Shown: positions 9,760 to 32,217 of the stretch, piece by piece
Layout: every line of letters begins with the position of its first letter
How positions within the stretch are numbered: the stretch's first letter is position 1
Origin: Moniliophthora roreri
Taxonomy: Eukaryota > Basidiomycota > Agaricomycetes > Agaricales > Marasmiaceae
Reading direction: 5' to 3'
Length of the DNA stretch: 64,000 bases
Assembly: GCA_001466705.2 (NCBI GenBank)
Contig: LATX02000209.1
Span: forward strand, 1-64,000
Translations under genes and position numbers: made by a program
Notes under the pieces: generated by a model
Databases searched by the model: none
The model's input: only the letters and a program-made list of their open reading frames with translations
Told to the model about the DNA's origin: nothing

Positions 9760-11322
9760 CTATGCAGCCTTTTCCTTGCCTGGGTTCTTTGCTCCCTCTG
9801 CTGGCACCCTAACCTCAATATCAACTGTCTGTATATGTGATCGGGTATTTGAGTTCCTAGATCCTGGACCTGCACTCTCAGCAAAATGAACACTTGACAT
9901 GGCTTGGTTTGTGCTTGTATGTTCAACAGTTTTTCCACTGACTGCCCGTATAATGATCAATGTTGGGGCAATTCCCTATGAGTGGTGTTTCAGATTAGTT
10001 GACAACAGAAAAAAAAATTGAACATACAGCAACTTGATACAGGACAACTGAAAGTGAAAAAGGTAATAAGCCTGTTCCATCTGGATCAGCCAATGAATTG
10101 TAAATGACATCAGCAATAAGGAAGATGGGGTAGAGGATTCCACTGTCAAGTCTAACAAGTTACAAGTGAGAACATGTCCTCTGAATGAAAGGAGAGTTGA
10201 AAAACATACATGATGGCTACAATCATCTTATACCTAGTTTCAGTGGCAGGTCCTGTATGCTTCTGTGCTCTTTGGCTAACCCACCATATACGACCAGCTA
10301 CAGGAAGCAAGTTAACTTCTAGTTTTTCACAGATCAGATGGGACTGACCTGTGAGCAATGTCAAAATTATATTCACTCCCATTTCTGCAGGCCAAAATGC
10401 AGTGTTTATAGCATTGCCCTGGAAGTATAGTTCCACTTTTGCTGGATCAGCAGTGTTGCTGATACCAACAACCCGGAAGGCACAGGCAACAATTTCACAG
10501 ACTGGTACCAGTGCCAGAATGAGCTGGATGATGCAACCAAATTGAGGAAAGACTTGCCAGCTAGTGAAGCCATAAGGAAGATCATTGGAAATGCAATCTG
10601 TTTGGATGAGTTCCACAGCACATAACAACGGTGGAGCTGAATAGATTCAGAGGTGCTTGAGAATCCATGAGATAGAGTTACTATAAGGGACATACCAGCA
10701 TTAAGTCTGCCACAGTCCTATCTCAAATGGATTAGCCAGTAATTCAAATGCACAAACAAAATGGACCTACACCAAAAATAATGGCAGGAACTCTTCAAAA
10801 CCACTAAATCAGACAAGAGTTCAGTCAGTGGCAAGCATGTGCAAGTGACCCCATACGCACGCTAGAGTTGTCTTCACATTGTCATGCTCCAAATATGCCA
10901 AAAATGCAGCCCAATCCTGATTTTTGGTGAATGTAAACTCCCGGGTTGCTTGTTTGGCATAAATGAAGGTTGCCACAACATTATATGCACTTGTCAGAGT
11001 AAAGAGTACTGTGGTGAAGAACATGTAGAGTACTCGGTTCGGGTGTTTCCCTCGGTGGATAAGGATACGGAGTGAAATGGCAAATATAACTGTGTATATG
11101 CCTGGAGCAAGTTGTGTGTCAGATGCTCATAGTGACTGTGCCAAAAGGTTTGAGCTTACCATAAATATACAGCATAACCTGGAGAAATGAAGGAATGCTG
11201 AGAAAAACAGAAACCAACAAGAATAGAACACATACAGTGAGATTTGCCATTGGCCGCACTAGGATAGTGGTGATTGAATCAAAAGGTGCAACACCTTCTC
11301 CCATTACAGAGGAGTCAGACAT
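9760..11322 (-). CDS. Multi-pass membrane protein, CpG-eroded paralogue (copy 1)
   Basis: Read on the minus strand from ATG at 11,322 (MSDSSV...) to a stop at 9,760. Blocks interrupted by short introns align throughout with the gene at 15,765-17,318: an N-terminal hydrophobic helix, a block with FTFTKNQDWA, a helix with QLILALVPVCEIVA, GRIWWVS, and a hydrophilic tail ending in KEKAA. The pattern fits a basidiomycete-specific membrane family of about seven helices and unknown function. This copy lies in the CpG-poor block, and several codons differ from copy 2 by CG to TG or CA. One splice junction (near 10,560) uses a GC-type donor or is broken, and I cannot reconcile the frame there. It may be decaying. 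Exon boundaries are not firm. Confidence 0.5.
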
Positions 11323-13117
11323 GGTACACAGTCGCAGTATGAAGGATGCAATGAATGAGCCCCGCATTTTATACTCTTCAATTCCCTTTGTTCCGAAAGT
11401 GTGCAAAAGGAACAGTTATTTTGGACCTATCAAGATGTCTTGTAAGATGGACATTGCATGAATAAATGATGAGATGTATCTGGAAGTTACTGACGCAGTG
11501 GAGCGAACATCCCAAGTAGCAGTGATATCGCTGGTGGAATCAGTATCATTACGCCGAAACCCGCAACTTGAACGTTCTCACGCTGCGACGCATTTCCTCC
11601 GGTTTTTGTTGAGAGATTTCTGTGCCGTCGGTATCGACCTAACTCTGCCCGCGTGATCTGGAGACAGCTGAGATATTGAATTACGATGAGAACACGGATA
11701 GGAAAACTAAACCATTCACAATCGTGTTCGCCAAAAAGAAACCAGCTACCCGGACAAGTCCGAAGGTCGATCATCGGAATCAGAAGCTGTCCCGTCGTGC
11801 TGTAATCCCGGATAGCTGAGCAACAACCAGACCAATAAGCGTGAAGCGTACGAGAATCCCAAAGTGATGACATCACATCGTTCTCAGCCCTTTCTGGGAC
11901 TCAAGTGAGAAGATCAGCGATGTACCGGTTCCCGAAATGTTCTGAGGCTCTTAAATGCGATCTCCTGACCAATATGTGTAGTAATAAACCGCCATTATGA
12001 TTGATTGTTGAGTGTCCAGCTAGAAGAAGTGCTGATTGTTGTCCTATCTTTAGGATACATCACGATCGGGCTGGTGTCCTTGTCGAACGTGATACCTAAT
12101 TGCAGTGCAAGAGATGTGCAATGAACTAAACTCCGTTGAGACCTCCATTCCCTTAAATCTCAAAGAGTCGAATGAACTTGATCGGCATCAAAAGTCCACC
12201 GGATTTCACCGCCGGGAGATCCCTGTTCCTTCGGCGAAGGTGGTACAAGTGACCTGGTATTGGAAGGACAAAGGAAAGCAACCTACTAAGAGACGAGAGT
12301 AGAGGAACTTGCTGATACTATGTACCCGGCCGCGCCCCCGGCGGGCAGTGCGAATGTTGGTACAATAGGCGAAGTGGGCCTAAGGAAGATGAGAAACAGA
12401 AATTTTCACTGCCGAGGGTTTGGAATGTTGGTAGTTAGCTTGCGTGCGTGATTATCAAACGATCCGAGAGCTATTCAGTACATTACCCACGGGCAGCGGT
12501 CGTCAGTGGAATCTTTGTCCGGTATATTTCATGTTTCCAAGGAACACTTGAACCAGCAGGAATTATGGATATGAACAGAAAAATGCATACCATTAGTTGC
12601 GACTTCCTCCTTGAAGCTCGTGGTATGACAAAAACGAAGATCTGCGTTGCGTCGCGGCTGGGTGACACTTGATGCATATGGACAGCGTCACCAAGCCAGT
12701 GCTGAGCAGGAAGCTCACCGGTTGCAAACCGAATCCGAACGGTCGCTCGATGGAAAAACATGTAACTCGATAAACATGATTTAGGTCTTTAAGATCGTGC
12801 ATTGTATTTAAGTACTTGAATCAAAGCTCAATACACTGACCCCACTGAATCGCCATCTTTCTATCCTCCTCATCACCCTTAACAAATGGAAACGCCCTAC
12901 GCCCGAAGTCATTTCACCTCCTGACCTCCTTCTCAATCCTCTCTTTCCCATCCAAAGTCTGATATCCCGGCGAAATAGACGAGAACGAGAGAATGAACGA
13001 TTCGACGTCTGTACACGTCATCGAATCAGCTTGCATAATCACCACGGACGGTCTCTAATACGCCGGGGATGTTTCCACGTCTGTCGTCCCAGCGTAAATC
13101 GTATAGGGGTCCAACGA
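11323..13117. other. No gene recognised; composition boundary near 11,490
   Basis: Upstream of copy 1 the sequence changes from CpG-poor to CpG-normal at about 11,490. Open frames of 60-130 codons occur on both strands (for example 11,487-11,876 minus) but show no family resemblance, no splice-linked continuation and no conserved motif. Confidence 0.4.
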
Positions 13118-13439
13118 TTATGGGTGATACGTGCGTTGAGAGGGGCTGGAAATTGAGATTATGGCTCTTTGGTGCCGAGGAATGATTTGGGACCAGCTAA
13201 GTTTGGGTTCGATTGTTGGGTCTCGGTTCGCCGCACGAGTAGCTAAAACATTCTTCGCCCAAACTGCCTTGGCCTCTTCAAGCTTCAAACTTCCTCTTCT
13301 CTTCCGAGTCCTCCTTTGCACCTCCTCTGCCTTCTTCCTTGTCTCCTCTTCTCCTACCCGCCTTTCAACACGTAAACGCTTCACAACGACCTCATGCTCC
13401 AACAACTCTCTTCCTCTCCTCAGGATTGATGAGCTGGAT

Positions 13440-15764: not shown

Positions 15765-17318
15765 CTATGCAGCATTTTCCTCGCCTAGGTTTTTCATCCT
15801 CTCTGCCGATGGGTTGGCCTCGACGTCAACCGTCTGCACACGCGATCTGGTATCCGAGTCCCCAGATCCTGCACCTGCACCATTGGCAAAATGAAGACCT
15901 GACAAAGTCTGTTTCATGCTCGTATGTTCAATGGTTTTTCCTCCAGCTGCCCGTATAATGATCAATGTCGGGGCGATTCCCTAAGAGTAGCAGTTAGCTA
16001 ATCATGAAAGAAAAAAAGGTGTCTTACGCACAGTGACTTGATACGTGACATTCCAGACCGAAAAAGGTGCTGAATTGTGATGATCTGGATTGGCTAATCG
16101 ATCGACGACGGTAGCAGCAATAAGAAAGATGGGGTAGATGATCCCACTCTCGAGGCTAATAGAGTATAGGTGAGAATGAGTTCTTGAAATTAAGAAGGAG
16201 AGTTCAAAAACATACATGACAGCTACAACCATATTATATTTGATTTTACTAGCGGGACCCAAATGTTTCCGTGCTTCTCGACTGATCCACCATATGCGAC
16301 CAGCTACAGGAAGCAAGTTAGTGTCCGGTTTTCGCGGATCAGACAGGACCGACCTGTGAGCAACGTCAAAATGATATTGATGCCCATATTTGCCACCCAG
16401 AAAGCTTCGTCTATAGTAGCGCCCTGGACATATAGCCGCCATCTTGCTGGATTAGTAGCGTTGTTGCCACCGATGACCTGTAATGCGGAGGCGACAATTT
16501 CACAGACTAGTACCAGTGCCAGAATGAGCTGGGTAATGCAACCAAACTGAGGAAAGACTTACTAGTCAGTGAAAACATAAGGAAGATCAGTGGGAATGCG
16601 ATTCGTTTGGATGAGCCCCATATCACGTAGCAGCGGTAGAGCTGAGTAGATTCAAGGGTGAGTTTGGGAATCCATAAGGTAAGATTACCATGAGAGACAT
16701 ACCAGCATTAAATCCGCCGTAATCCTACCTCAAATGGATTAGCCAGTGAATCCGGACCCACGAAACAAAAAGCTTACACCAAGCATAGCGGCAGAACCAA
16801 CTCAAAGCCACTAGAGCATTCTCAGTCACAACGAACCCATGTAAGCAACTCCCTACGTACAGAATGATTGTCTTCGTGTTATCGTGGTGTAAGTACGCCA
16901 AAAATGATGCCCAATCCTGGTTTTTGGTAAATGTGAACATCCGAGTTGCTTGCTCGGCATAGCTAAAGGTATTCACAGTGTTGAGTGCGGTTGTAAAGGT
17001 GAAAAGAGCTATGGTGAAGAATATATAGAGTATTCGGTTTTGGCGGTCCCGTCGGCGGATTAGGAGACGGAGTGAAATGATGAATAAGACGGTGTAGACA
17101 CCTGATGCAGGTTGCATGTCAGATACCGTAGCAGCACTACTGAAGGGTTCGAGCTTACCGTAGACATAAAGCATAACCTAGAGAAAGGGATGAACACAGA
17201 GAGGGGAAATCAACAGGGGGATAAAACGTACAGTAAGATTCGTCATTGGTAGCACCAGGATAGCAGTGATTGTATCAAAAGGCGCAATATCTTCTTCTGT
17301 TACGGAGGAATTGGACAT
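15765..17318 (-). CDS. Multi-pass membrane protein (copy 2)
   Basis: Read from ATG at 17,318 (MSNSSVTEEDIAPF) to TAG at 15,765-15,767. In order: an extracellular N terminus and a first helix (ITAILVLPMTNLT), a helix after the second intron (VYTVLFIISLRLLI), a basic loop (RRRDRQNR), a helix with YIFFTIALFTFTTALNTV, FTFTKNQDWASFLAY, QLYRCYVIWGSSKRIAFPL, a helix with LILALVLVCEIVASA, NIILTLLTGRIWWIS, IYPIFLIAATVV, and a hydrophilic C-terminal tail of about 65 residues. About seven helices are present, as in a basidiomycete-specific family of unknown function. Introns start with GTACGT, GTAAGC, GTATGT and similar. The junction near 16,560 cannot be made frame-consistent by me. The start codon is 322 bp from the end of the KDZ transposon, so its promoter may now contain that insertion. 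Confidence 0.7.
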
Positions 17319-17639
17319 GGTACCGAGTCACTGTGAGGAATGCAACGACCTAAGCCTCACTTTTTATACTCTTCAATTGAATTTCCTTTCTGTCAGAAGT
17401 ACACAGAAAGAGCGGTTGCCATGCGAGATGGGCGTTGTAAGAGCGATGAGGCGAATCTGTGAAATTGCTGATGATCAATGGCCTCATCCATGATAGGGCG
17501 AGCAACCCGAGTTGGTGGGTAAGATGCAATGTTTTGCTCGTTGCACTGCTGTAGACTACATACGCTGTACCGTAATGCTGAACAACTGAACAATGATCAG
17601 ACCAGAATAAGAATAAGGACATAAAGCCAGCATACCATG
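17319..17639. other. Upstream region of the membrane gene, cut by the transposon
   Basis: No gene is visible. It contains the 5' flank of the 15,765-17,318 gene and ends with CATG (17,636-17,639) next to the transposon. Confidence 0.5.
17636..17639. other. Possible 4-bp target-site duplication (CATG)
   Basis: CATG precedes TAG... of the left terminal repeat, and CATG follows ...CTA of the right terminal repeat at 30,967-30,970. CATG is its own reverse complement, so these four bases could also belong to the inverted repeats. An 8-bp duplication, as reported for Zisupton elements, is not visible here. Confidence 0.4.
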
Positions 17640-17687
17640 TAGAACATTTTTCATTCTCCCCAGCAATTCAACCCCGACACATTATAA
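17640..17687 (+). repeat. Left terminal inverted repeat of the KDZ element
   Basis: Matches the reverse complement of 30,919-30,966. The best-conserved core is ATTCTCCCCAGCAAT, one mismatch, CAACCCCGACAC, one mismatch, TTATAA. The outermost 12 bp are only partly conserved apart from the TAG at the tip. Confidence 0.85.
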
Positions 17688-17699
17688 TGTTCCCGCCAC

Positions 17700-18720
17700 C
17701 TACCAAGGCCTTGATCAATGATAATTGTTCTTTCCCTTTTGTGACCCAGCCTTGGAATGAATAATAACTTGCCCTCGGTGCGAATAATAAGTGAGACGAG
17801 GAAATACCAGCAATGCCTAATTCGGTAGTCATGCATTATGACGCACGGTCCTTTCCACGGTTGGATGTTTGCTTCCTCCTTTCACCTCCCCTTCCCCCTC
17901 CGTCCCGCAATGTAGTATTGTATAGTGCGTATTCCACATATCTCGACGTCTCCCGCATTTATGCTGTCCCGTAGCATCACCAATAACATCCAAATACCAC
18001 ATCATCATTCGTTCTATTTCCAGTAGCGCCGGGCGGCCCTCATTATTATTATCGCTCCTTGTCGGTTTATTATTCTCTGCACAGTCAACTGTGACCTGTA
18101 AGCGCGCTCTTTATAATTCTTCAACAATTGTACTCATTTTAATTGCCTCACCAGCTAGTGCCCATTATTATTTTTCGCCGAGCCTTAGTGTTTATCATTC
18201 TCCCCGGTCGCTGGTGCGTTCGGTACCATTTATTATTTGTCGAAGCTTGGACTCATTATCATTCTCCTACGACTGCAGCCCGTTCAGATAATTGCGCCCC
18301 AAAAGTCCACTACACTACTTCGAGGCTATCAGCAGTGATGGAACTCGCAGTCAATACCTGAGCCTCATATCCATTCCCGGCATTATTTGGATAGCTCGAC
18401 AAATCCTTGCAGGACAGATTATCATTACCCAGCACTCGGCCCAATTATCATACTCCCTGTATCATCAATCTTGACGAACCGATGGGGTGAGTGCACATTA
18501 TCATTTCCCAGTACTCGTACTCATTTTAATACTTCCCTAACTCCCGCCGGTCGACACGAATTATTATTCCACAGCGCTCAAAACAATTATCATTACCTTG
18601 TGTGGTTAATCTTGACGAACTGACACAGTGAGTCCACATTATCATTCAGTAGTACCCCATCCAATTATAATACTTTTCCAGCCCCTCGACCTCAACAGCA
18701 TCCCCTCGCTATATGCCAAT
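17700..18720 (+). repeat. Left subterminal repeat array
   Basis: More than a dozen diffuse copies of a motif close to CATTATCATTCYCC are scattered every 30-80 bp (for example near 18,170, 18,189, 18,250, 18,420, 18,500, 18,560, 18,590 and 18,640), separated by unrelated GC-richer spacers. Such subterminal motifs are the expected binding sites for a transposase or accessory protein. No coding sequence is credible here. Confidence 0.7.
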
Positions 18721-18929
18721 TTCCTCACTAGTTACAGTAGTCTATCCATTCATCATTTCAGATATGCACCTCACTTGAATGTCAATCACATCCAATGCAA
18801 TACTTAAGTTTGAATACAATAGATTCGCAAGACACTGTAAGTCCGAGCACAATGGGTTGGGTATAGGGTACGGCAAGTCCGTGCGTGCACGATGAAAGCG
18901 ACGCAGGAGAACGACAAGAGCGAATAGTA

Positions 18930-19080
18930 AACACGACGAATATGTATGATACTGATACGGGTGAATGAGGCAAAGGTGACAGGGGAGAATGATAAAGGAA
19001 GGAGGGAGAATAATAAAGGGTACAAGGGAGAATAATAAAAGGTACGAGGACGAGTATAAACAAGACGACGGCGAATGATA
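18930..19080 (-). repeat. Internal block of subterminal motif in opposite orientation
   Basis: Three closely spaced copies of GGGAGAATRATAAAGG, the reverse complement of the left-arm motif, lie near 18,984, 19,004 and 19,027, just downstream of the stop codon of the 637-residue gene. The orientation therefore switches between about 18,750 and 18,950. Confidence 0.6.
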
Positions 19081-19138
19081 GATGAGACAATGACGAACGC
19101 TGACGGTGACGAGGGCGAACGATATCGAGAGTATGATA

Positions 19139-21730
19139 TTACTTCTTCGTCGTTGACTTCTTCCTCCTTGCTGGTCCCCCTCCAACATTCGCTGTCGTAC
19201 TAGCTTTCGGACCCCCTTGTTTCTTCTTAGCCTTCTTGTCCTCGTCCTGCTTCGTAAGTGCCATCTTCTCTGTTAAAACCCGAGGACGCTTAGATCTCTC
19301 CGTCAAGGGCTCACCACCAGCTGGGACTTGTTCGGGAGACTTCCGTTTTCGCCCCTTCTTGGGCTGAACGTTGGGATCGTTTTCCTTCTCAGGAACCTGA
19401 TCAGTTGTGGGTGGTGCTGGAGGGATAATCGGAATGGTGGCAGAAGATGCTGGAACGTCAGATGACAGTGGCAAGGGAGAGGAGGAAGGCGGCACAGAAG
19501 AGGGAGGCGGAACAGAGGGCAACGAGCTAGAATGACCAGCAGGAACGTTATGAGCACAGGTGGTGGAAGCAAGTGTATGATCGACAGGTAATGAGGCCTG
19601 CTCCTGATGGATAGCTGGCTGGGCGAGGGTTTGTTGTGGATAAGCGAAGCATTGGTGATGATTGAAGGACGATTGTGCCTGCTGGGGCAAGGATAACTGA
19701 TCTAAAAGTGACGTCGACTGCGGGTAGAAGGGTTGCTGGTGTGGGAATTGGTTCTGCTGAAATGCAAATGACTGGTGCTGGCTGAAAGGGGGTTGTGGGT
19801 CAAAGTTTTGAGCTAGAAGATGCAAATCAGTAAAATGCTGCATTCAAATATGTTATACAACTTGCCGTTGTCAAACCAACTACCATTCAAAGACTGGGCA
19901 AGATTGTACTCGAAGTTTGGACCACCTGATGCTCGCCCTTCCGCCATCCCACCGCATCCAGCCTGCAAATCCCCATGCAACTCATCCCAAAGACAGAGTC
20001 CTCCACCATTTGTGCCATTAGTAGTAACACCAGAATCGATTTCAGGAAAGATAAAGCCGCCCACAGAAGTCGGAGTGGTCATGGTGGGATTAGAGTAGGC
20101 GAATTGCGGTCCAGCTTGACCATTGGCTACAGCTGAGGATACCGGAGTGTTGTTTGAAGGAGGAGATGGGGTAGTGGGTAGGTTTGGGGCTTCACGTGGT
20201 GCGCGGCTGTCTTTTTCTTCCTCTGAGCCGCCGTCTTTGGATGCAGCAGTGGCCGCCGCAGGCGGCATGGCAGGGGCATCAGCGTTGTTAACAGGAGTTG
20301 TGGTTGTGGGAGTAGGTAACGTGGCTACCACTGGAGTCGGTGATGCCAGATTCGGTGATACCGGAGAAGGGTTGGTGGCAGTGCTCGGTCCTGATTCTTC
20401 CTCCGCTTCGTTTTCTCCCGCTTCGTTTTCTCCTGCTTCGTTGTCTTCTGCTTCCTCATCTTCCACTTCCTCATCATACACCCTGGATTGACAGACAGCC
20501 TCCGCTATTCACAAGCATCAAGGTTAGCTCTCTTAGATTAACTCAAGGCTTTAAATTACTTACTGAAAATGTCTGCGGCATAATCACGAAAAAAATCTTT
20601 CATTTCCCCCATTCGTTTTGGGTCGAAGTCATCTGCGCTCTCGGCCTTCGACACCGACTCTGGAACCATACCATCGATACTAGGTATTTGCATCAGATTC
20701 TTAATTATTCCCCAGCTCAGTATTAAAAACAGACCTGGTGACGTCAATATTCCCATCACTCCGAGGCCCATATAGCACGATCGTACAACCAACGCCCAAG
20801 AGTTGAGCCAGCACATCTGCAAGTGTCGGCCCCACACGGTGAACCTTTTTCCAAGCCCTGAACAGGTGTTGAGTATCAAGCTTCAATAAACACATTATGG
20901 GACATTTACATGAAATAGGTAGCAGCATTGCTGTTCCAAGTGCCCTTGCTGCGGTATGCAGCCATCGCAGCTGCATATTCTTTGTCATTCTTCTCAGTCA
21001 AATCCTTCACGAACGCTTCGGACTCCTTATCGAACATCAATGAGGCATACCGGTTGCGTTCGCTGAGCAAATATCTACAAATCCTGGTGAGTACACCTAT
21101 CGACATCATGAACACATCAAGACTCACTTGAGGGGAAGATTAGCCTTGGCCCAATGGTCTTCAAAGCTTATCTTGAGGCGAGTATCCCAGAATTCCTGCT
21201 GGTAACGCTGCAAAATAGGAACCTTGCGGGGGCGGGCATTCATAAGCTGGAGCATGGTCCGGAGGACCTGGTTAACCACGTCACGATCGGTCTTCTTGGC
21301 GGTCCAATGGTGACGAGACCAGTTCCCGATTCTCTACAAGGTACATTAATGGTGGGTGGGGATATTAATACAAGGACGGCAGACAACTCACAGTCCGGGC
21401 ATCAGTTTCAAATTTTGCTCGGCGTTGATTCTCTGCATTACGCTCTGGACCTTTGGGGAAGGTGTTGATATCGGGATCAGCATGATTAAACTATGTGACA
21501 ATGAGCTCGGGGACACTTAAATGAGGGCGGAATAAACGTACACCTGGGATGGGCTCTTCCTCCAGCTTCAACGTCGTTCCCCATGTATCAACAAAGTATT
21601 TAGCGGCCTTTCGATACATCTTGCCTGTGTCATTATCGTATTCGGCCTTCATGCTTTCGAGGTAGGCAAGCTTGGGGCCTTTGGGCCACTGGGGTTTACC
21701 ACGAGGCTTGCCAGTCTTCTTACGAGCCAT
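19139..21730 (-). CDS. KDZ-element accessory protein, 637 residues, unknown function
   Basis: Eight exons, complement of 19139-19812, 19884-20504, 20564-20679, 20735-20857, 20910-21083, 21128-21333, 21392-21490 and 21542-21730; all junctions keep frame with GT-AG. An in-frame ATG nine codons upstream (21,757) is an alternative start. The N terminus is basic (MARKKTGKPRGKPQWPKGPK). Residues about 60-290 are a conserved-looking helical region including WNSNAATYFMAWKKVHRVGP and GCTIVLYGPRSDGNIDV. I recall similar proteins (tryptophan, then KVHQVGPTLAD, then a V-L-x-GP strand) beside KDZ transposases in other agaricomycetes. Residues 290-560 are low complexity: an acidic EAGENEAGENE repeat, then Pro/Thr/Ser and Gln-rich tracts. 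The C terminus is lysine-rich with KRKSPEQ and RRKKSTTKK, like nuclear localisation signals. It is probably a nuclear DNA-binding partner of the transposase; this is inference. Confidence 0.75.
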
Positions 21731-23291
21731 GGTAGGAGTGATAGATGGTGAGATCAATGAACTGGTGAGTGGAAGTGCAGGTAACTTGGGTTAAGTTGCA
21801 AAATAATGCGTACCATGATGCAGGCTTTATAGCTTGTCTGAATATTTTTTTGAGTCCATGATTATCATCACTTTTTGCAATTTTCAAGTGTGTTCTTGTC
21901 GGATAACTCTTTCTGTTCCTCGACTTACTCAAAATGGTTTTTTTCTCTGCTGTTGTCATTCCCACCAGATTTGATCTCAGCAGGGGTCCATGATAATGCA
22001 TCCCAGTACGCATTATCATTCATCTGTGCAAGGTATGTCTTATCCTCTTTTATTTGACAAATGATTCTTACCCCTGCATTTAAAGGTGAATAATTTTTCT
22101 GTTCGATCCCGACTCATCGGCATGCATAACGCCCATGCCACAAGTCCGCATCTTTCAAAGCATTCTGCACCATCATAGAGGTGTTTTGTGGCTCAAAAAG
22201 GTCAAGCCTCTTTGTTGTGCCCAATGCCGAGCCTCATCGTCTTCAATGTTATTCCAGAGCCAATGAAAAAATTTTACACCTTCTGGATGTAATAGAAGCC
22301 TACCAACGCGACAAAATTTTTCAAGTTACCTCAAGTGATGAAAATGTCAAGCAGCGAAACTGTCAAGCGGTGAAACTGTCAAGCGATGAAGATGTCAAGC
22401 AACGAAACTATCAAGCGACAAGGATGTAACCAATTCTGTTAGTGAGCCTCGTGGTTCACTGACGTCATATCCTTCATCTCAGGCCTTCGATGAGCCGACT
22501 GAAAATTTTTTGGGTTTCAGGCCTTCCACATCCAATGAAAATGCTAGCGCTACGTTAATCCCATCATCTCATGATGCTACAACTAACCCCTCTTTACAGC
22601 TTCTCCTTCACAACAGAGATTACCGACTATACCTGTTTTCCAGAAACTCCTTCGTGCACCATTTTTTTTTGCCTCCGCTTCCGTCTCCCTCCTTTAGTGC
22701 CGGACTCAGACTCAGTACTCAAGGCCCAACCTCTTTCTAAGCGGTTCACATCAGCTAGATGTTCGTCCGGTCACAGATTGTGACCCTTCACCCTTTGTCT
22801 TTTTCCGGAATCGCAGCTCTACTTCATATGATGGAAAACATTCAATTGACACCTGGCGTAGTTCACTCAAGTCCAACGCTGCACACCGGTGAGTCTAGGA
22901 GTTTTTGGGCTTCAAATTGATTACGTTTTTCTATGATATCGCTTATCAGAGTGCCTGACCTATTTCGTACACTCGGCCGCAATCAGATACTTTGAGTGAA
23001 CGCTGCCTGCCCAAAGTGTTGGGTCTGCAAGCGATTTCCTGATCACTCAATCCCGACTATTGTATGAGCAATCCATTGCATACCATATGCCTGCAAAGCA
23101 CACCCTGCTTAGCGTACCGAAGTGGCGATGGCTGACGTCAAGAGAAGTAGAGCGCTTATACTCCTCTCGTGTGATGTGTTGCAACAGAGCCTGGACCTCC
23201 AGGTAGGATTCTCCTCAATAGCACTGGCCAATGTTAGTGATACGGTAAAGCCAGTCTCGCAGATCCTGTAGATGTCTTAATAGTAAAAAAT
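21731..23291. other. Gene-poor interior of the transposon
   Basis: No convincing gene. Open frames at 22,181-22,429 and 22,510-22,740 (plus) show no family. A few subterminal-type motifs (GATAATGCATCC near 21,990, CATTATCATTC near 22,011) and a 16-bp tandem repeat are present. This could be the promoter of the 637-residue gene plus a decayed passenger. Confidence 0.4.
22331..22426 (+). repeat. 16-bp tandem repeat, six imperfect units
   Basis: Units follow GTCAAGCRRYGAAACT with variants such as GATGAAGAT in place of GGTGAAACT. In the plus frame it encodes a repeated S-S-D-E-x-V-K-Q-R-N pattern. It may be a coding remnant or a structural minisatellite. Confidence 0.7.
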
Positions 23292-24186
23292 TTATTTCTG
23301 GAATGCAAGACACAACTTCCTGTATTTAGAAACAAGCTCCGAAATACCCCCGCTGAGTGCATGGCAAGCCATGTCCGCAGTCGTGGAGAGTCGACCGCTT
23401 ACCCTGACTCGCATGTCTTCGTACTGTCTATACATGTCCCCATTGTCCATATGCTCCAAAATGAGACCTTGGCACTTGAGAACATCTGAACGAAGCTTCT
23501 CCAAGCGTGTATGGAACCCTTCAAGAATATCATAGGCTTGCTGATTGTCCAGTGCCCTTGAAGCCGCGTCGTAAATGGACTCCGCGTACTGGCGATCAGT
23601 TCCTCCTCCAGCACCTATGAGAGCAAAGGTATGCTGAATCTTCACCAACTTCAGCTTCCAGTATTCGTCGTCACTCGGACTAGGACAGTTGAGAATGAAA
23701 AGGCATGAACTTGGATTGCATTGAAGAGTAAAGGATATCGTACTATGCTTGATTTAGTAGAGCTTTCTGATCTTTTGAGTGGGTAGCAAGGAGGTGTTTT
23801 GAGCATCTGCATGAGGATTTGTAAGACTTGATTGAACATTTAGTCGAGAATATGATAGCGCACCTGGGAGCATCGTCATCTACACCAAAACCAGACCTTT
23901 CTCGAGCTCTTTGATGCGGAGTGGCTGCTGTATCTTCAATAGTAGCTTCTGCTGATGATTTGAGTGTCCTGGATGAGAGTATTGAGTTCAATATGATAGT
24001 GGAATAGTGAAAGGGCCAACTTCTTCCGACGTTTTGCATTCAGCTCATCCTTGTTTCTAGTCCAAATATAAGCATATTGACAGTGAAGAATACCCATGAG
24101 ACTCACCTATAGTACCATCTGAGACTTCTCTCAGCATTTGCCAGCCTTCTCTCTGCAGGTGTGTTGTAGAGTCGTTTTCGAGGCAT
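23292..24186 (-). CDS. Small basic KDZ-element passenger protein, 193 residues
   Basis: Four exons: complement of 23292-23679, 23864-23951, 24031-24056 and 24107-24186. Start at 24,186 (MPRKRLYNTPAERRLANAER). The first 40 residues are strongly basic and helical, followed by NKDELNAK, an acidic linker with SGFGVDDDAP, then about 130 residues of predicted helix (SIYDAASRALDNQQAYDIL, GFHTRLEKLRSDVLKC) without repeats or known catalytic motif. I recall short proteins starting R-x-Y-x-T-x-x-E-R-x-x-A-N-R in many agaricomycete genomes near transposons, but know no function. The third intron (23,952-24,030, GTCGGA donor) is longer and weaker than the others and is the least sure junction. It lies in the same orientation as the other cargo genes. 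Confidence 0.6.
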
Positions 24187-24822
24187 CGTGGTAAAGGACA
24201 AAGTGCGAACGAAGCGTCATCCTGCTGGTGTTTCCGCTTGACATTTTCGTTGAGCAATTTGAGACTGTCTTCCACCATGATTATGATAAGAGACAGTCTT
24301 TCAAGGATCATAAGTATGATTATGACACCTCCTGGCTTGCAGAGCGATGTGGAAGAGAGATATAACAAAAGTACTTTGTTGCTGCTTAGGCGCTTATGAG
24401 CGCTAGTTCCGATAACTGAGACGGTGTTCCTGATTTGGATAGGAAATCGCCGCTACTCAGTGCCCTTCACTAGTGCTGCTTTTGTCTTCGAAGTAGTGAT
24501 ACATGTGCTAAGTGGTGTACTCAAGGCCTTCGTCGATGAGGATATCTATGAACCAGAAAGACGAACACAAAATCAAAGCTCGTGTTCAGTCAGTTCAAGG
24601 CAAGTATTGCAGTAACGAATCAATTTCTTTGATAGGCAAGAGCTGGTACATTTTATTATTTACATGGTGAGAGGGGAATAGCCATTTCTGGTGTTTTCTA
24701 GTATTTTCTACTTAGAAGCGAGGCAATATATATCGGATGCAAAAGATGCGAAGGCGAAGGAAGACTTTCAGTAAGAAGTATCATATATTGAGTCCAAGTG
24801 GCGAAGGCGACGTAACAGACCA
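24187..24822. other. Spacer between two cargo genes
   Basis: Contains the upstream region of the 193-residue gene and the downstream region of the next gene. A 63-codon open frame (24,424-24,615, plus) is not supported by any motif. Confidence 0.4.
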
Positions 24823-25616
24823 TCACAGGAAGAGTACACCATAACCAGCGGGCACAGTCAGATTAGCTGCATCAGCGGGGTTACCGATACACTTCGCCTG
24901 CAACTTGACGGACGTCGAGGATTGGGCATCCTCTAATGCAAAACTGCGATGAAAATTCCCAGGCGCTCGATTGACAAGTCTTTGCACACGAAAGCTGTTG
25001 CGGAGTGTAAGGCACTTATTAATAGAGAAAAAGGTGGTACGTACTTGCCCTGTACCCAGCCTACACATCTACCACAGATAACGGCATACCAACGGTCGTC
25101 ATTGGCGTCGTAAGGAGTGGGTCCAGCATTCTGAACAGCGAACTGGTGCCAACAATGACAGGACCTAGATCTTGGTTAGGTCATCAGGAACAGCAATTTG
25201 TCGGGAAACTTACCTCTAGGATGAGCGGACATATTAGCTATGCGAAGAGATGTCAGTATCACTGATTGCTGAGATGAAGAATGACGAAGAGTTCAGCTGA
25301 CCTGGAGAAATAGCAGTACTGCCGGCGCCAGGAGTCGCATTAAGAGCAGCTGCATGAGAAGATCAGGTAGGGCTGAATGATTAAGTTGAAAAGACTTACT
25401 TGAAGAAACAGTGGGAAGAGTAGCCGTTGCATGCCTGTGATATGACATGTGGAGCCGCTGCGAAGGTTTGCGGTTGGGTAGAAGGCGAAGGTTGAGAACT
25501 GGTTTGTGGATCAATGTTAAAGACTCACCTCCTTGGCTGACTTGGTTTGCAAGAGCTTGCAGAATCGTGAAAGCCTAGTCGCCAGTGAGGCGGGAGAGAT
25601 CGAGTATAGCCATAAT
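24823..25616 (-). pseudogene. RNase H1 N-terminal/viroplasmin-like passenger gene, probably interrupted
   Basis: The last two exons (about 25,170-25,045 and 25,003-24,823, complement) encode a segment with DDRWYAVICGRCVGWVQG, then RLVNRAPGNFHRSF and LEDAQ. This follows the viroplasmin/RNase H1 N-terminal layout (WY-V-x-x-GR-x-VG, then a glycine-containing turn, then F-x-x-x-E-x-A), which binds RNA-DNA hybrids in known members. Upstream is a low-complexity stretch rich in Ser, Pro and Thr over several short exons. The likely start at 25,616 (MAILDLSRLTGD) is followed after 12 codons by an in-frame TAG at a place where the reading otherwise continues as AFTILQALANQ. CAG to TAG would explain it. 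The joins between the N-terminal exons are not resolved, so either the gene is dead or the true start lies elsewhere. Confidence 0.45.
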
Positions 25617-25980
25617 GATGGTGATGATAGCGAAAGTGAGTGATGGGTCTTCATGTAGTCGGGTCTGGTTTATATCAGCTATGAATTTGGCCTCATTTGG
25701 TCGAGCTTACGTTCGGAATGAGGATAGTGAAGGTCGAATTATAATGGAGAGAATCGAATTATAATGTGGGTGAAGGTTACGATAGACGCAAGATGGTGTC
25801 AAGCAATGTGAGAGATCTGTAGAGCTACTTTGAGTCAAGATCGGGATGGGAGTTTTGTCATACGTACCATGTCCTGCATTTCTAGAAAAGTCGGAGATGG
25901 AAGTTACGAGTCAAGACTGGCATGACAGCATAGCGCGTGTTACGGTTATTTCCCATCATTTCCCACAGTGGCTTTTTTCC
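25617..25980. promoter_or_regulatory. Divergent promoter region between cargo and transposase
   Basis: The only shared 5' region in the element: minus-strand cargo to the left, transposase to the right. It contains two copies of TCGAATTATAATG (starting at 25,733 and 25,753), the same motif type as the subterminal arrays. A transposase or accessory protein that binds the arrays could therefore also bind here. This is inference from the shared motif. Confidence 0.45.
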
Positions 25981-28900
25981 ATGCCCAAGCAGAAGGACGA
26001 AGACCGACTACGAGCTCGTATCAAGCATGCCTCGCAACAGGCCTCTAGCAAGCAATATACCTCAATCCATTCGACAGCTCATCGAATCCATACCACCAAA
26101 CGCAATGCACCCCCTCCGAAACCGTCAGAATTCCAAACCGTGCCGGGAGCATGGCCTGACGATACGCCTCCGTCACTCGATCCACAGGGTTTAGAAACTG
26201 TGGTACCAGCAGCTGATATCGAGGAACCTGGGAAATTGAAGGTTAAGGCTAAAGCAAAAAGATACCTGGATTCTGTAAGTTTGCTATGATCGCTAGCGGC
26301 TCGCTATCTAACCAAAAAATAATCTTGTAGGATGCACCTCTTCTATCATGGAGGGACAAACATCGCGAGGAATACTTGGACCACATAATGATGTCTGAAG
26401 GTCGGGGTCAGATGTTCACAGGAACATGCAGCGGATGTGTCTCGGAGCAGGCTGTCTACCGGTGCCAGGACTGCATCGGGCTTCCTTTGCTATGCAAGCA
26501 ATGTCTTTTGGAGAAGCACACAGACATGCCCCTCCACAGAATTCAAGTGAGTGCTATGCTTCGTTATTAGTGATAAGGAGGCTTATTGTTATCCCTAGGA
26601 ATGGAAAGATGACTTTTTCCATCAAACATCGCTTCGCGAACTAGGTCTAGAGATTCAGATTGGACACCGTCGACTGCCTGGAGATCGTAGGGAATGCCCA
26701 TTCCGAGAGGGAACACGTGGAAGCGAAGGATTTTTAGTGCTAGGGTGGAATGGCATTCATATTGTGAATCTCTTTTTCTGTGGCTGCGAAGGAGCACCAG
26801 GTATGTGGCATTGACGCCTTTTGACCTACTCTCACTCACTTCATGCTGTAGAGAAACACCTTCAACTGCTCGACATAGGTTGGTGGCCCGCTTCTTACAA
26901 GAATCCGCAGTCTGCAGCTACCTTCGAATGCCTGCACAACTTCCACATCACGAATCTGCAAGGAAAACTGGCTCATACTGACTTCTATCGATCATTGGAG
27001 CAAATCAGTGATGGTAGTGGGCTAACATCGGTTCCGGTGAGCTTTCGCCGTATACACTTGCTATATATTCCTCATTAAACTCGTTATCCAGGATCGAGAG
27101 GCTCAATTCATGACCATGATGCGAGAGTGGCGCCACATCAAGACTGGGAAGCGTTTCGGACGGGCACACGATCCCACTGGGCTTGGCGGCACTCAAGAAG
27201 GGACATGTGCAGTTCCGTGCCGTGCATGTCCCATTCCCGGTGTGAATTTACCTGAAAACTGGCACCAGGCTCCTGCTAGCAAGAAGTAAGTCTACGTATG
27301 TCATCTCTAAGATGCATACTTACTGATGTATTGTGCGCTCTGATAGGTGGCTGTATAGCCTTCTTTTAGCGGAGGATGCTAATTTCAAGCAAAAGGCGCG
27401 GGCCAGGCCGAATGACCATCGCGACGTGCCTCTTAATCCTGGATGGGGCTGTACTGTCGCTCACAAACCATATCTTGAGGAGATGGCGAAGTATGCAAAT
27501 CAAGACGAAGTACGTATATTACCAATATCCTTTACAAGCTCGTCAACTAAATCACACACAGATCAGCCATTGTGTCGGCTTCTCCGCCATTTGGAATGCT
27601 AACAATAAGAAGACGAAGGGCTTGAGAGCAACAGGAGTCGGTGCTGTCACATGCTCCCGCCACGAAGTGATCCGGCCCAATGGTTTGGGTGATTTACAAG
27701 TCGGCGAACGGTGTGTATCCTTATATTAATATTCGCATCGAGTGCTAATGTTGAACAGGTACGGGAATATGGATTACATCCTCTTATCCGCTATCATCGG
27801 CTGTGTACTGGCACTCATCGTCATCTCATATGATATTGCCTGTCAGTGGGGGAAGGGTTTCCGCGAACGAATGAAGAAGATGCCACAACATCTACACCTT
27901 CGTGAGGACATCAAGCTCAAGTTCAAAGTTCCCAAATTTCATCTACCCGCTCACGTCGAAAAGTGTTTTGCCCCTTATGCGTTCAACTTCACTGAGGGTG
28001 TCGGATTGACTGATGGAGAGGGGATTGAGCGGGTTTGGTCATCGCTAAATGAGATCGCTTCATCGGCATCAATGATGACTGCTGGCGGTCGATGGGATAT
28101 CATGGATGACCATTGCAACCATTGGAACTGGCGGAAAACCGTACTTCTCCGTAAGTTTTCAGTTTATCAACGACATTATATGTACTAATAGCAACGGACA
28201 GCGGAAAACTTACTCAAGAAGCTCCTCAGGGCGATATCAGAAGCTGTTATTCACACGCTAGCGTTCGAGGCGTTCACAGATGGGCTCAAGATTCACCACT
28301 CTGCAGAGCTTGCTCTCTGGGAGTCCCAAGTAATTGCATGGGAGGAGAGGAGGGATAGTTTTTGTCCTTACGATCTGCCGGTTAACAGTACGTACGTTAT
28401 TTGGCTACTTGTTCTCTAATGACATCTCAATCTTCTTCACAGCAGTTACCCTTTCAAAGCTCAAGCTAGAACTTGCTGCCGAGGAACATCAGAAGGAGGT
28501 TGAGGGGAAAAGTACCTCGGATCAGACTATCAGTGGTATGGTGATCGAAGCTGTTGACATCGAGGAAGCCCAGTACGTCGAAACACGTTTTTCCATAGCA
28601 ACCTTATCTAACATCAAATCAGGCGCTCATTGGTCGCGACGCTCGAGAAAAAGAACCTCAGTGAATTCCAGCAAACCACCATTCAGAAGGCCCGAACTGC
28701 CCTGCTTCGCCGTATCCGAAAGTTTCGAGACATGCAAGCTATTCATATGCCTAGGCTCGCTCGTCATCTCTCATCCCTGGAACCACCCGATGAAGAACGA
28801 CCCGAACTGATAGATTTGTATCTCCCAAGCAGCTTTGATGACGCTACACGACCCAAGATATGCTCGAAGAAGATCTCTGAGATCGAAGAGCGTGTGCGCA

Positions 28901-29850
28901 ATGCTCAGTTGTACGACTGCTTGGCAAGTCTTCGAAGCCAACTACGGGCACGTGGGATCCTCTACCAACATTCAGATCGAGCAACTCCATCTCAGGGACT
29001 GTATCGGCGACTCAATGCATGGAAAGATCAGGTGGAGGCGAAGATCAAGAGCATTCGGTTATGCTATGACAAATCACGAGCAGCACTCCTAAGTCTACGT
29101 GGACATGGCGATTGGGAGAATGTTTTGAGAGTTCTTCGGGGTGAAGATATTCGTGGAATTGGAGAGCGGCTGTTAAAAGAAGAGGAGAAGGCAGAGTTTA
29201 GACGGGCTCAAGAGCGGGCGGGCATCAGCAAGGAGGATATTGAGAAGATGCTCTCCGGCGTTGACAATATTCCCACTGTCATGGTCAATCAGGTTCTCGG
29301 CCGTGGCGATAGTCGAGCCGCTCCCAGCTGGATATGGTATACGCTCGGAGATCCTACTGATCCTAATGGCTCTGCAACAAAGGAGATCGAAGCGAGTAAG
29401 TTCCATTATTAATATAGGTCATATTGAAACTAATAATGACCTTTTCAAGGTCTCCGAGTTGAGTGGTGTAAGGCTCGGGCCCGCGCTCGACGAGCACGGG
29501 AAGAGTTACTTTTGGTTGAGGAGGAGATGCGTAGGGCGTTGGCTTTCTGTCACTGGCGGGCCAAGTGGTGGACTGAGCAACTCGAACGCCGACCAAACCT
29601 CTCTTCTCCATTATCCGAGGGTCTTCGAGCATATGCAAAGGAACAGTCGGTACATGAGCTGCAACGAGCCGAGCAGTGGGAAGAACGGTGGAGAGCTCTA
29701 CGTGATAGGGCGGCTGCGATCGTACGGTGGATTGATGACCCAAAGGTATCAAGGGATACCGAGTTGGGAAATTTGGCGAGATTGGAGGTAGAGGTCGAGG
29801 TAGATGGCGAAGAGAACAATATTGATAAAGACATGGACAATGACTGGTGA
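25981..29850 (+). CDS. CxC2-type KDZ transposase, 1,094 residues
   Basis: Twelve exons: 25981-26274, 26331-26546, 26599-26800, 26852-27036, 27092-27285, 27347-27509, 27562-27710, 27759-28150, 28202-28387, 28443-28572, 28623-29395 and 29450-29850. All introns are GT-AG, about 47-61 bp, and every junction keeps frame (3,285 nt). Start chosen at MPKQKDEDRL; an in-frame ATG lies upstream at 25,846. The CxC2 cysteine cluster (residues about 120-165: CSGCVSE, CQDC, CKQC, then two histidines) should bind zinc. A second cluster reads CAVPCRACPIPGVNLPENW. The RNase H-like core has KWLYSLLLAEDANF, GLRATGVGAVTCSRHE, GDLQVGERYGNMDYI, SYDIACQWGKGF, VPKFHLPAHVEKC and GVGLTDGEGIERVWSSLNE, with acidic residues where KDZ enzymes keep their catalytic triad. 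The C-terminal 350 residues are coiled-coil-rich. It should cut the 17,640 and 30,966 ends. No inactivating change is visible. Confidence 0.9.
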
Positions 29851-29959
29851 TATATTCATGTACCGGTACCTCAGTGAAGCGCAGTTGGTTCATTTTTTGG
29901 GCACTTGAGTTGTTGATGATGATTATCACTGAGCGCTTTCTATTTTACACTCGGACTTG

Positions 29960-30900
29960 GCAAATAAGAATCAAAGTATTCATTATAATCTGCACTGAGT
30001 ACATTGAAGCTCAAACGGGGCCGAATAATAATAATCTGTACACGCCTGAGATGCCGGAGATCAAATGGTAATTCGACAAGCTGAGGGAAATAATGGGACC
30101 GAATCCAGGAATGCATGTAACGAAATAAGGGAGTTTCGTATGATTCAAGGGATAGTCCGTGTAAGAGCGTGCACAAAGGCGGGAGGTTTCAGGAAATGGC
30201 AGCCGAAGTCAAATGATAGCTTGCGTGGTATCCAGGGTAGGAAAACCACTGAGTACAGATAATAATGAGCTCGTGTCATTCGAATGATAATTCGTACGCA
30301 CCTGAGATCCGAGGAGAAGCGTTGGAAGTCGAATTATAAGTCAAGGTGACCAGGGTAAGTAGAAACGCTGGGGGAGAATAATAATGAGACTGAGTCCATG
30401 AAAACAGGTGACGATGCGCACCCAAGATGTCAAGAAGCGAGGTTTGATGAAATAAGGAAGTTTTGCTTGTGATTGTGTGGCTTTCGAGGGATGCTGAGGA
30501 AGGAATCCATGAGAGAGCGTGCGCGAAGAGTTTCAGGACCGTCGTATCAGCGTAGGTCGAATAATTATTTGCCCAGTATCCAGGGCGGAGGTGCTGTGCA
30601 AATGATAGAAACGTTCGGGGAGAATGATAATTCGATGTGAGAGGGCAGGTATCCGGGAAGTAGCTGAGGGACAATTATTAATGGCTCGAGCCCAGCCAAA
30701 TGATAAAGGTACGCACCTATGAGCGAAGAGCAGTGAGACCACAGAGGCAGAATGACAATTCAGCAGTGTGTTGTAGATTAATAAATATGGTCAAGGAATG
30801 GGAGGGATGGAAGCAGAATAATAATGCTACGAAGAGGGAATGATAAAGGATACTGGTGGGAATAATAAAGGTACCGAATACCGAATGCGGTCATGACGTG
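29960..30900 (-). repeat. Right subterminal repeat array
   Basis: Mirror image of the left array: copies close to GGAGAATRATAATG (for example near 30,373, 30,618, 30,820, 30,836 and 30,859), with variants near 30,020, 30,259, 30,285, 30,556 and 30,690. Spacers are unrelated. Open frames here, such as 30,276-30,674, result from the repeat and lack coding evidence. Confidence 0.7.
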
Positions 30901-30918
30901 CGGTTGGTAGGGTGCGCT

Positions 30919-30966
30919 TTATAACGTGTCGGGGTTGCATTGCTGGGGAGAATTACATTATTCCTA
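30919..30966 (-). repeat. Right terminal inverted repeat of the KDZ element
   Basis: Reverse complement of the left end, with the shared core GTGTCGGGGTTG, one mismatch, ATTGCTGGGGAGAAT, ending in CTA at 30,964-30,966. Confidence 0.85.
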
Positions 30967-30970
30967 CATG

Positions 30971-32217
30971 GACTGCTCTCGAATGCCCGAGGTTATCAAT
31001 TCAAATTACCCGGTGACTACTCGAAGATCGCGAGGATTAGGAATGATTACGCAGCAGATAAGAGAGGCTGAAGAGAAGATTTGGGAAAAGGCGAGCCAGG
31101 TATTCTCTGATATATTAAGTTTGCTTACTCCATGTCTAACACGGGAGATAGCCGTGCATCCTGTTTACTGGAAAGAATGTAATCTGGACTGTGTTCCGTG
31201 AATGTATATCCCAACCCAGTCCTCGTGGTGGATGTCGCTCAACCGTCGAGGTATGCATGAAATTAGTAGCGAAATCTGCTATTGGATCTCTTCCCGAATT
31301 GTTTGACATGATTGTATGTACCATGCCAGCCTGTGGGTTTTTGGGGACCAACAGCACTGGCTATGCCCGATGTTCTTGACTCAATTCAATCGTTCTCAGC
31401 ATCTACCGCTGGTACTTCCCGTTCATCGTGATCATCTTCGTTGTACCTTTCTGCATGACAATAGAACCGATGTCTTCGCCTTCAGTCATCCACTATGGAC
31501 AAAGAAACAACTTATGGGCGTTTTCAATGATATTAGTGGCGCTCTCTATCATGATTGTGGATTGTTCATGAATATCATTGGGCAATCACTGGGGCCATTC
31601 TATCTCAACTTGGTCATACGAAGACAAGGATGTCAATGGACACAGTAAAATGTTTATGAATGTCTGGCGTTCTCAGGTCACCAGTCATTTTCACACAACC
31701 CTGGGAGCTTCTAGCGCTTGCCTCAACAGGCACCAGGATCCCCAAACGTTGGCACAGGTACCTATTGACGCCCTGCGTGACAGCTGTAGTTACAAAGTCA
31801 ACGTTGCAGCTGAGACCGTGACCCACGTAAATGGTAGACGCTGCTTGAATCATGTTTGAATCACCTATTTTAAATAATAGACAGATAGATCACATCATGT
31901 ACTCGAGTAGCACAAGCTCTGTGACACGCATAGTCACACTGACTTAAGGTGTCAGTAACGTTCACATCACCGGTTGCTATTCTGAACATTCAGTCTCAAT
32001 TCTGGCGTCTGGAGCGCTAAATATGTTCTTTCATCAAACCTAGTCGGTTACGAGAGATGAACTTTGAAGTTTTGTATGTACAAATTACGCTTCCTGAACT
32101 CTATCTGAAGCGAAGTTCGTCCTCATTGCAGACACGCCTGGCCCTAAGGTCGACTGGGTTCAGCGCTGACGCTCGTCGACCTCTCCTCTACGAACTGGTT
32201 ACCCCCATAAAAGTCTG
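30971..32217 (+). other. Flanking DNA without a recognised gene
   Basis: A hydrophobic open run around 31,400-31,560 on the plus strand (YRWYFPFIVIIFVVPFC and a second helix with ILVALSIMIV) could be part of a membrane protein, but it has no start, no linked exons and ends at a stop. Other frames (30,926-31,201; 31,578-31,859) show no motif. Possibly a decayed gene. Confidence 0.3.

What the first reader, a model, noticed from the sequence alone, without database searches (positions are those of the whole stretch)
17640..30966. Complete 13.3-kb KDZ transposon with intact transposase and three passenger genes
Both ends are present as near-matching inverted repeats, the transposase has twelve frame-consistent exons, and cargo is arranged divergently from one promoter region. 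KDZ elements are usually described from transposase genes alone, so a fully bounded copy with termini and cargo is informative and could be mobile.
Basis: partly seen in the sequence, partly recalled or inferred. Interest (0 to 1): 0.9.

Follow-up and report, generated by a model that had tools for sequence, protein, structure and literature searches.

The report
Large mobile element in cacao fungus
This is a 13-kilobase jumping gene of the KDZ family in a cacao-pod fungus, predicted to encode its own transposase and two companion genes whose relatives mostly sit near related transposases elsewhere in the genome; the DNA on its two sides carries the marks of two different insertion events, likely because the genome assembly joined them wrongly.

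Summary
The window (Moniliophthora roreri, contig C108) does hold a full-length KDZ transposon, but several details of the finding are wrong. Aligned copies put the ends at 17,628 and 30,978 (13,351 bp), 12 bp outside each proposed end. CATG is part of the inverted repeat; the family's target duplication is 7 bp (9 of 14 end pairings exact). The 12-exon transposase model (1,094 aa) is unbroken and identical to an annotated M. roreri protein. The ends are multi-copy. This copy's own flanks do not match each other (ATAAAGC / TCGAATG). Each matches an end elsewhere (contigs C13 and C93), so the locus as assembled joins two insertions: a misjoin most likely, or recombination between copies. Passengers 1 (730 aa) and 2 (223 aa) are open. 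Passenger 3 has a stop 12 codons after its ATG. Relatives of passengers 1 and 2 lie within 20 kb of KDZ transposase relatives at 7 of 8 and 4 of 5 other places, once inside one bounded 18.5-kb element with an exact 7-bp duplication. The companions are therefore probably long-standing parts of these elements. Complete and mobile KDZ elements are already published, so this is a new member of a known kind.

The parts
17628..30978 (+). whole KDZ element, 13,351 bp
   Evidence: alignments of copies stop at 17628 (left end) and 30978 (right end); no N inside the element
17628..17704 (+). left terminal inverted repeat, starts CAGCATACCATGTAG
30902..30978 (-). right terminal inverted repeat, reverse strand starts GAGCAGTCCATGTAG
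17621..17627 (+). left flanking 7-mer ATAAAGC; its exact partner is at the end of contig C13, not at the right side of this copy
30979..30985 (+). right flanking 7-mer TCGAATG; its exact partner is at C93:110234, not at the left side of this copy
17717..19038 (.). left subterminal array: 11 TTATYATT and 6 AATRATAA
   Evidence: dinucleotide-shuffle means 0.19 and 0.09, maximum 2 in 500 shuffles
30024..30868 (+). right subterminal array: 9 AATRATAA, none reversed
   Evidence: shuffle mean 0.14, maximum 2
25981..29850 (+). transposase gene, 12 exons, 1,094 aa; CxC2 at residues 182-293, KDZ domain at 367-591
   Evidence: D374, D493, E555 and E558 invariant in all 14 aligned proteins, this one included
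19139..21730 (-). passenger 1, 8 exons in my model, 730 aa; annotated as WG66_013060 (727 aa, 99% identical)
   Evidence: no Pfam domain
23292..24186 (-). passenger 2, 5 exons, 223 aa; identical to Moror_11776 of strain MCA 2997
   Evidence: no Pfam family above its cut-off
24823..25613 (-). passenger 3 region; in-frame TAG 12 codons after the first ATG, downstream exons open; probably broken in this sequence or a different start is used

Best explanation
The window holds a full-length 13,351-bp KDZ-superfamily DNA transposon (17,628-30,978) with a predicted intact transposase, from a multi-copy family whose paired ends mostly sit between exact 7-bp target duplications (9 of 14 pairings) and which therefore likely moves by cut-and-paste, while the two flanks of this copy carry the marks of two different insertions that the assembly probably joined wrongly. 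Shown: ends, 7-bp duplications of the family, multiplicity of the ends, open transposase frame, mismatched flanking 7-mers each with an exact partner elsewhere, and the repeated neighbourhood of passengers 1 and 2 with KDZ transposases. Inferred: the transposase binds the terminal repeats and probably the A+T-rich subterminal arrays (AATRATAA), cuts the element out and inserts it with a 7-bp stagger; it may also move short non-coding derivatives with similar ends. Passengers 1 and 2 probably serve the element (for example DNA binding, assembly of the transposition complex or regulation) rather than being chance cargo. Activity today is untested.
For: KDZ (E 1.6e-62) and CxC2 (E 1.2e-30) domains in the 1,094-aa protein. 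Termini and 7-bp duplications: 9 of 14 end pairings exact, 1 of 14 with 6 of 7. Six of seven near-identical left ends have an exact 7-bp partner among ten right ends (70 comparisons, 0.004 expected), including C108-left with C13 and C93 with C108-right. Five contigs stop 94-98 bases inside the element (C115, C4, C2, C9, C13), and four further ends run into a gap: C93:110234, C112 and C22 after 223-253 bases, C93:111252 after 1,515, as expected where an assembler cannot resolve near-identical copies. C93:111252 is 99.93% identical over 1,519 aligned bases, 4 of them outside the element. Five 3,061-bp non-coding copies are 99.87-100% identical, which points to recent movement. The window's left side belongs to a multi-copy gene family with five listed hits on C13, and C13's end flank resembles window 12,871-13,148 (70% over 298 bases), fitting C13 as the true neighbour. 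Passenger relatives lie within 20 kb of a transposase relative at 7 of 8 and 4 of 5 other places. The C85 element (18,491 bp, inverted repeats of 999 bp at 98.6%, exact 7-bp duplication ATTTATG) contains relatives of passenger 1, passenger 2 and the transposase.
Against: Only one full-length copy of this transposase is in the assembly, and the internal stretch 22,000-23,250 is found only here apart from one weak 136-base match; so identity between complete copies cannot be measured, and the window sequence may be a collapsed mixture or the only complete copy. Some copies share only their ends: C121's right end diverges after 362 bp, and C89 and C14 carry a 90%-identical right-end variant. Four of 14 end pairings show no duplication (two are alternative pairings of one right end). 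No transcript or excision data. The short copies have ends only 75-94% identical to this element, so cross-mobilisation is not shown. Both passenger structure models were too poor to use (mean pLDDT 44.7 and 30.4).
Confidence: 0.8

Rival explanations
1. The mismatched flanks are real: two copies of the element recombined with each other, so the chromosome itself now joins the left flank of one insertion to the right flank of another.
For: The two 7-mers each have an exact partner elsewhere, exactly what exchange between copies would give; translocations and inversions between M. roreri isolates are reported (PMC10468315, abstract and passages).
Against: Contigs stop or gap inside the same element at nine other ends (five contig ends, four gaps), a typical sign of unresolved repeats, so a join through this repeat is not trustworthy.
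Confidence: 0.25
2. Passengers 1 and 2 are chance cargo or neighbours in repeat-rich regions rather than working parts of the element.
For: KDZ loci are many (67 domain matches, 66 over the cut-off) and some cluster; distances vary from 3.7 to 18.1 kb for passenger 1 and 3.8 to 14.6 kb for passenger 2, and orientations differ; the passenger 1 match at C85 is a single 84-residue segment; passenger 3 has an early stop; no homologues outside M. roreri were found for passengers 1 and 2 at E <= 1e-5.
Against: Both sit inside one bounded element at C85 with a 7-bp duplication; three passenger-2 relatives lie 3.8-4.0 kb from the transposase; binomial chance about 1e-12 and 2e-7, which assumes independence and even spread.
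Confidence: 0.3
3. One reading: one clean insertion bounded at 17,640 and 30,966 by a CATG duplication.
For: CATG is present at both places in the window.
Against: CATGTAG and the bases outside it (CAGCATAC, GAGCAGTC) are the same at unrelated sites, so CATG is inside the element; the 7-mers outside the true ends differ.
Confidence: 0.02

Closest known systems
Kyakuja elements of Agaricomycetes (Kojima 2025, PMC12730594; abstract, three sections and passages seen)
   Same: KDZ transposase, 7-bp target duplication, one end starting 5'-CA, Agaricomycete host, passenger genes
   Different: published ones have 5'-CA..TG-3' termini and no inverted repeats and carry a TET/JBP dioxygenase; this one ends ..TGCTC, has 76-nt imperfect inverted repeats, and none of its proteins that I scanned matched a TET/JBP domain
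KDZ1, KDZ2 and KDZ3 of Cryptococcus neoformans (PMC12810828; passages seen)
   Same: complete 9-11-kb KDZ elements with inverted repeats and short target duplications; shown to move
   Different: 139-241-bp inverted repeats, 4-8-bp duplications, CxC1 instead of CxC2; no companion genes mentioned in the passages I saw
Zisupton (as described in PMC12730594, section 4)
   Same: KDZ superfamily, inverted repeats
   Different: 8-bp duplications
KDZ and Plavaka elements of Marasmius oreades (PMC8290104; passages seen)
   Same: a related mushroom; terminal repeat motifs of its KDZ and Plavaka elements were characterised there
   Different: the motifs are in a supplement that I did not see, so not compared

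Membership tests
KDZ superfamily | KDZ transposase domain (PF18758) | tested here: met
   211.5 bits against a cut-off of 26.6
KDZ superfamily | CxC cysteine-cluster domain before the core | tested here: met
   CxC2 106.2 bits against a cut-off of 27
KDZ superfamily | conserved acidic residues of the core | tested here: met
   D374, D493, E555, E558 invariant in all 14 aligned proteins, this one included; which of them are catalytic is inferred
KDZ superfamily | bounded element with terminal repeats and a target duplication of fixed length | tested here: met
   for the family: 7 bp, 9 of 14 pairings exact; for this copy the two 7-mers differ
Kyakuja | 7-bp target duplication | tested here: met
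Kyakuja | 5'-CA..TG-3' termini and no inverted repeats | tested here: not met
   ends CAGCA..TGCTC with 76-nt repeats at 76%
Kyakuja | place in the KDZ transposase tree | not tested
   no labelled reference sequences were at hand
TET-carrying KDZ elements | TET/JBP dioxygenase inside the element | tested here: not met
   no TET/JBP match among the proteins and frames scanned (not every frame of the element was scanned); the genome search for PF12851 gave 0 but rang in no control genome either, so it shows nothing
Zisupton | 8-bp target duplication | tested here: not met
   7 bp

The most novel reading that the evidence does not exclude
KDZ elements of M. roreri are multi-gene machines: two uncharacterised companion proteins (passengers 1 and 2) have travelled with KDZ transposases long enough for the transposases to diverge to about 45% identity, and are functional partners in transposition or in evading silencing, filling the place that TET/JBP holds in other KDZ elements.
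Probability: 0.35. Interest if true: 0.6.

Novelty: new member of a known kind. Interest (0 to 1): 0.42.

Why it matters
It gives exact ends, a 7-bp target duplication, subterminal arrays, short derivatives and two recurrent companion genes for a large KDZ family in a crop-damaging fungus; one search for 'KDZ transpos' together with Moniliophthora found no paper in the library. It also warns that this assembly joins flanks with unmatched insertion marks through the element, so gene order across it should not be trusted. The companion genes turn an open question, whether KDZ elements need more than their transposase, into something that can be tested.

Tried and rejected
CATG as target duplication: rejected, since it lies inside the terminal repeat at unrelated sites. 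Structure prediction of passengers 2 and 1: too poor for a fold search (mean pLDDT 44.7 and 30.4); no fold search was run. Passenger 3: I suspected from memory a resemblance to the RNase H1 N-terminal / caulimovirus viroplasmin domain; Pfam gave no match at E <= 1 for its 98-aa downstream piece, so this is dropped. TET/JBP in the genome: 0 matches, but the control rang nowhere, so nothing is concluded. Homologues of passengers 1 and 2 outside M. roreri: none found at E <= 1e-5, but the first search scored only the 7,993 candidates sharing most words, so absence is not shown. Empty sites in this genome: not searched with joined flanks; M. roreri is described as haploid (PMC10468315), so no second allele is expected.

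Rows dropped before a count: for I used the 7 left ends at 99% identity or more out of 10 left-end loci (L008-L010 left out, 94-95%) and all 10 right-end loci; the other listed ends were not fetched as such. For one search I used 14 pairings of 13 short copies out of the 20 stretches. For one search the transposase loci come from one search, which scored 42 of 127 candidates. The subterminal motif was chosen after seeing the repeats. The C85 ends were moved 6 bp outward on each side by eye after the flanks were seen, then checked.

Full report
WHAT IS THERE. The window lies at C108:1-64000 of a 59.4-Mb genome in 154 contigs. A protein search returned the transposase as WG66_013037 of Moniliophthora roreri, on a contig of 439,797 bases, the length of C108. 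Inverted-repeat arms of 76 nt lie 13,197 nt apart.

EXACT ENDS. Searches of the host genome with 121 bases around each end gave 40 scored matches each, the window itself included (of 123 and 103 candidates; 82-100% and 92-100% identity). In the loci fetched, alignments start at 17,628 on the left and 30,978 on the right at unrelated sites. The element is therefore 13,351 bp, 12 bp longer on each side than proposed. Its ends read CAGCATACCATGTAG and, on the other strand, GAGCAGTCCATGTAG.

TARGET DUPLICATION. Of 14 pairings of ends of 13 short copies, 9 have an exact 7-bp duplication, 1 has 6 of 7, and 4 have none, two of these being alternative pairings of one right end. The rule holds in a distant element at C85, which carries ATTTATG on both sides.

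THIS COPY IS NOT ONE CLEAN INSERTION. Its flanking 7-mers are ATAAAGC and TCGAATG. I compared the 7-mers of 7 near-identical left ends (three less similar left-end loci were left out) with those of 10 right ends. Six of the 7 left ends have an exact partner, with 0.004 exact matches expected in 70 comparisons. The window's left 7-mer pairs with the end of C13; its right 7-mer pairs with C93:110234. The other pairs are C115/C121, C4/C9, C2/C89 and C22/C14; C93:111252 has no partner among the ten. Contigs C115, C4, C2, C9 and C13 stop 94-98 bases inside the element. C93:110234, C112 and C22 run into a gap after 223-253 bases, and C93:111252 after 1,515. These are the marks of an assembly that could not resolve near-identical copies. 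The window's left side belongs to a multi-copy gene family with five listed hits on C13, and C13's end flank resembles window 12,871-13,148 (70% over 298 bases); this fits C13 as the true neighbour. A misjoin is the simplest reading. A real exchange between two copies would look the same, and I cannot exclude it. A search with the 822 bases right of the element found only themselves.

TRANSPOSASE. Twelve exons (25,981-29,850) give 1,094 aa, 100% identical to the annotated protein. KDZ (residues 367-591) and CxC2 (182-293) score far above their cut-offs. D374, D493, E555 and E558 are invariant in an alignment of this protein with 13 relatives that I picked from the 120 listed of 499 hits. The best foreign relative is 50% identical (Paramarasmius palmivorus). 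In this assembly it is the only full-length copy; the next best is partial (C81, segments at 71-82%), and most other segments are 33-64% (42 of 127 candidates scored). An internal non-coding stretch (22,000-23,250) is also found only here, apart from one weak 136-base match. So either further complete copies are collapsed into this one, or this is the only complete copy; the data do not decide.

PASSENGERS. Passenger 1 (21,730-19,139, minus) models as 730 aa, 99% identical to annotated WG66_013060. Its other two hits are 68% and 67% identical, both from strain MCA 2997. Passenger 2 (24,186-23,292, minus) models as 223 aa, 100% identical to Moror_11776 of MCA 2997, the only hit. Passenger 3 (25,613-24,823, minus) has an in-frame TAG 12 codons after its first ATG; its downstream exons are open. 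Only passenger 3 and the transposase face away from a shared gap.

COMPANIONS RECUR. tblastn with passengers 1 and 2 found 8 and 5 other places. Of these, 7 and 4 lie within 20 kb of one of 21 transposase loci, the window's own included (at most 1.5% of the genome lies that close; binomial 1e-12 and 2e-7, assuming independence). The exceptions are C98 and C132. Gaps range from 3.7 to 18.1 kb and from 3.8 to 14.6 kb. Orientation varies. At C85 relatives of both passengers and of the transposase lie inside one 18,491-bp element with 999-bp inverted repeats at 98.6% and an exact 7-bp duplication: transposase segments at 34-54% and one at 72%, passenger 2 at 32%, passenger 1 in a single 84-residue segment at 42%. 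At C119:327,501-346,500 relatives of all three lie in the same order, with one right end at 345,001, but I found no left end in the stretch held. Passenger 3 has one weak relative, at C98, on the contig of a sister left end.

FAMILY AND ACTIVITY. Five 3,061-bp non-coding copies are 99.87-100% identical over their whole length; none of the 13 short copies matches the three proteins. C93:111252 is 99.93% identical to the window over 1,519 aligned bases before a gap. These point to recent movement in the family; who moves the short copies is not shown. Subterminal arrays: 17 copies of AATRATAA/TTATYATT in the left 1,513 bp and 9 in the right 1,127 bp, against 2 in the 10.7 kb between and 5 in the rest of the window. 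The C85 element has none, so this array is not general to these elements. The motif was picked after viewing repeats.

WHAT IS KNOWN. Kojima 2025 (PMC12730594; abstract, sections 4, 19 and 34, and passages) describes complete Kyakuja elements with 7-bp duplications, CA..TG ends, no inverted repeats and a TET/JBP gene. PMC12810828 (passages) shows mobile KDZ1-3 in Cryptococcus. PMC8290104 (passages) says that terminal motifs of KDZ and Plavaka elements in Marasmius oreades were characterised. PMC10468315 and PMC3948071 (passages) cover M. roreri genomes. One search for 'KDZ transpos' with Moniliophthora found 0 papers. A search for at least three of KDZ, Zisupton, transposase and passenger gave 8 listings, none of whose titles names companion genes other than TET/JBP (listing only). 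The library holds open-licence papers only. The element meets the KDZ tests. It fails one Kyakuja test (termini and inverted repeats) and the Zisupton duplication length, so I leave the subgroup open.

VERDICT. A real, full-length KDZ element, better bounded than proposed, in a multi-copy family that looks recently active. The locus as assembled is chimeric. New member of a known kind, with a modestly novel point in the recurrent companion genes.

Noticed in passing
C85:704510-723000 (L041, L042): A second bounded KDZ element, 18,491 bp, with inverted repeats of about 1 kb and a 7-bp duplication; another KDZ fragment lies just outside it at 723,045.
   Followed up: partly
L030-L034 (C100, C98, C66, C12, C101): Five 3,061-bp non-coding copies with related ends, 99.87-100% identical.
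   Followed up: partly
L038 (C126:286135-290803): A 4,669-bp copy that looks like the 3,061-bp copy with part of its interior repeated; a single N lies between the two parts, so it may be an assembly effect.
   Followed up: no
window 10718-11383 and 16725-17627: Members of a multi-copy gene family (39 other places in the capped list), with several hits each on C13, C77, C101 and C126; the only Pfam hit is below its cut-off.
   Followed up: no
C93:110234-111252 (L021): Two left ends of the element 1,022 bases apart by fetched coordinates with a gap between; the scaffold order here is doubtful.
   Followed up: partly
window 2075, 3468, 6856: Single N letters that probably stand for assembly gaps of unknown length.
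   Followed up: no
C109:45310 and 47575; C122:5747 and C148:211466; C9:32782 and C82:9592; C147:12148 and C79:184215: Pairs of equal-scoring KDZ or transposase matches, suggesting local or dispersed duplicates.
   Followed up: no
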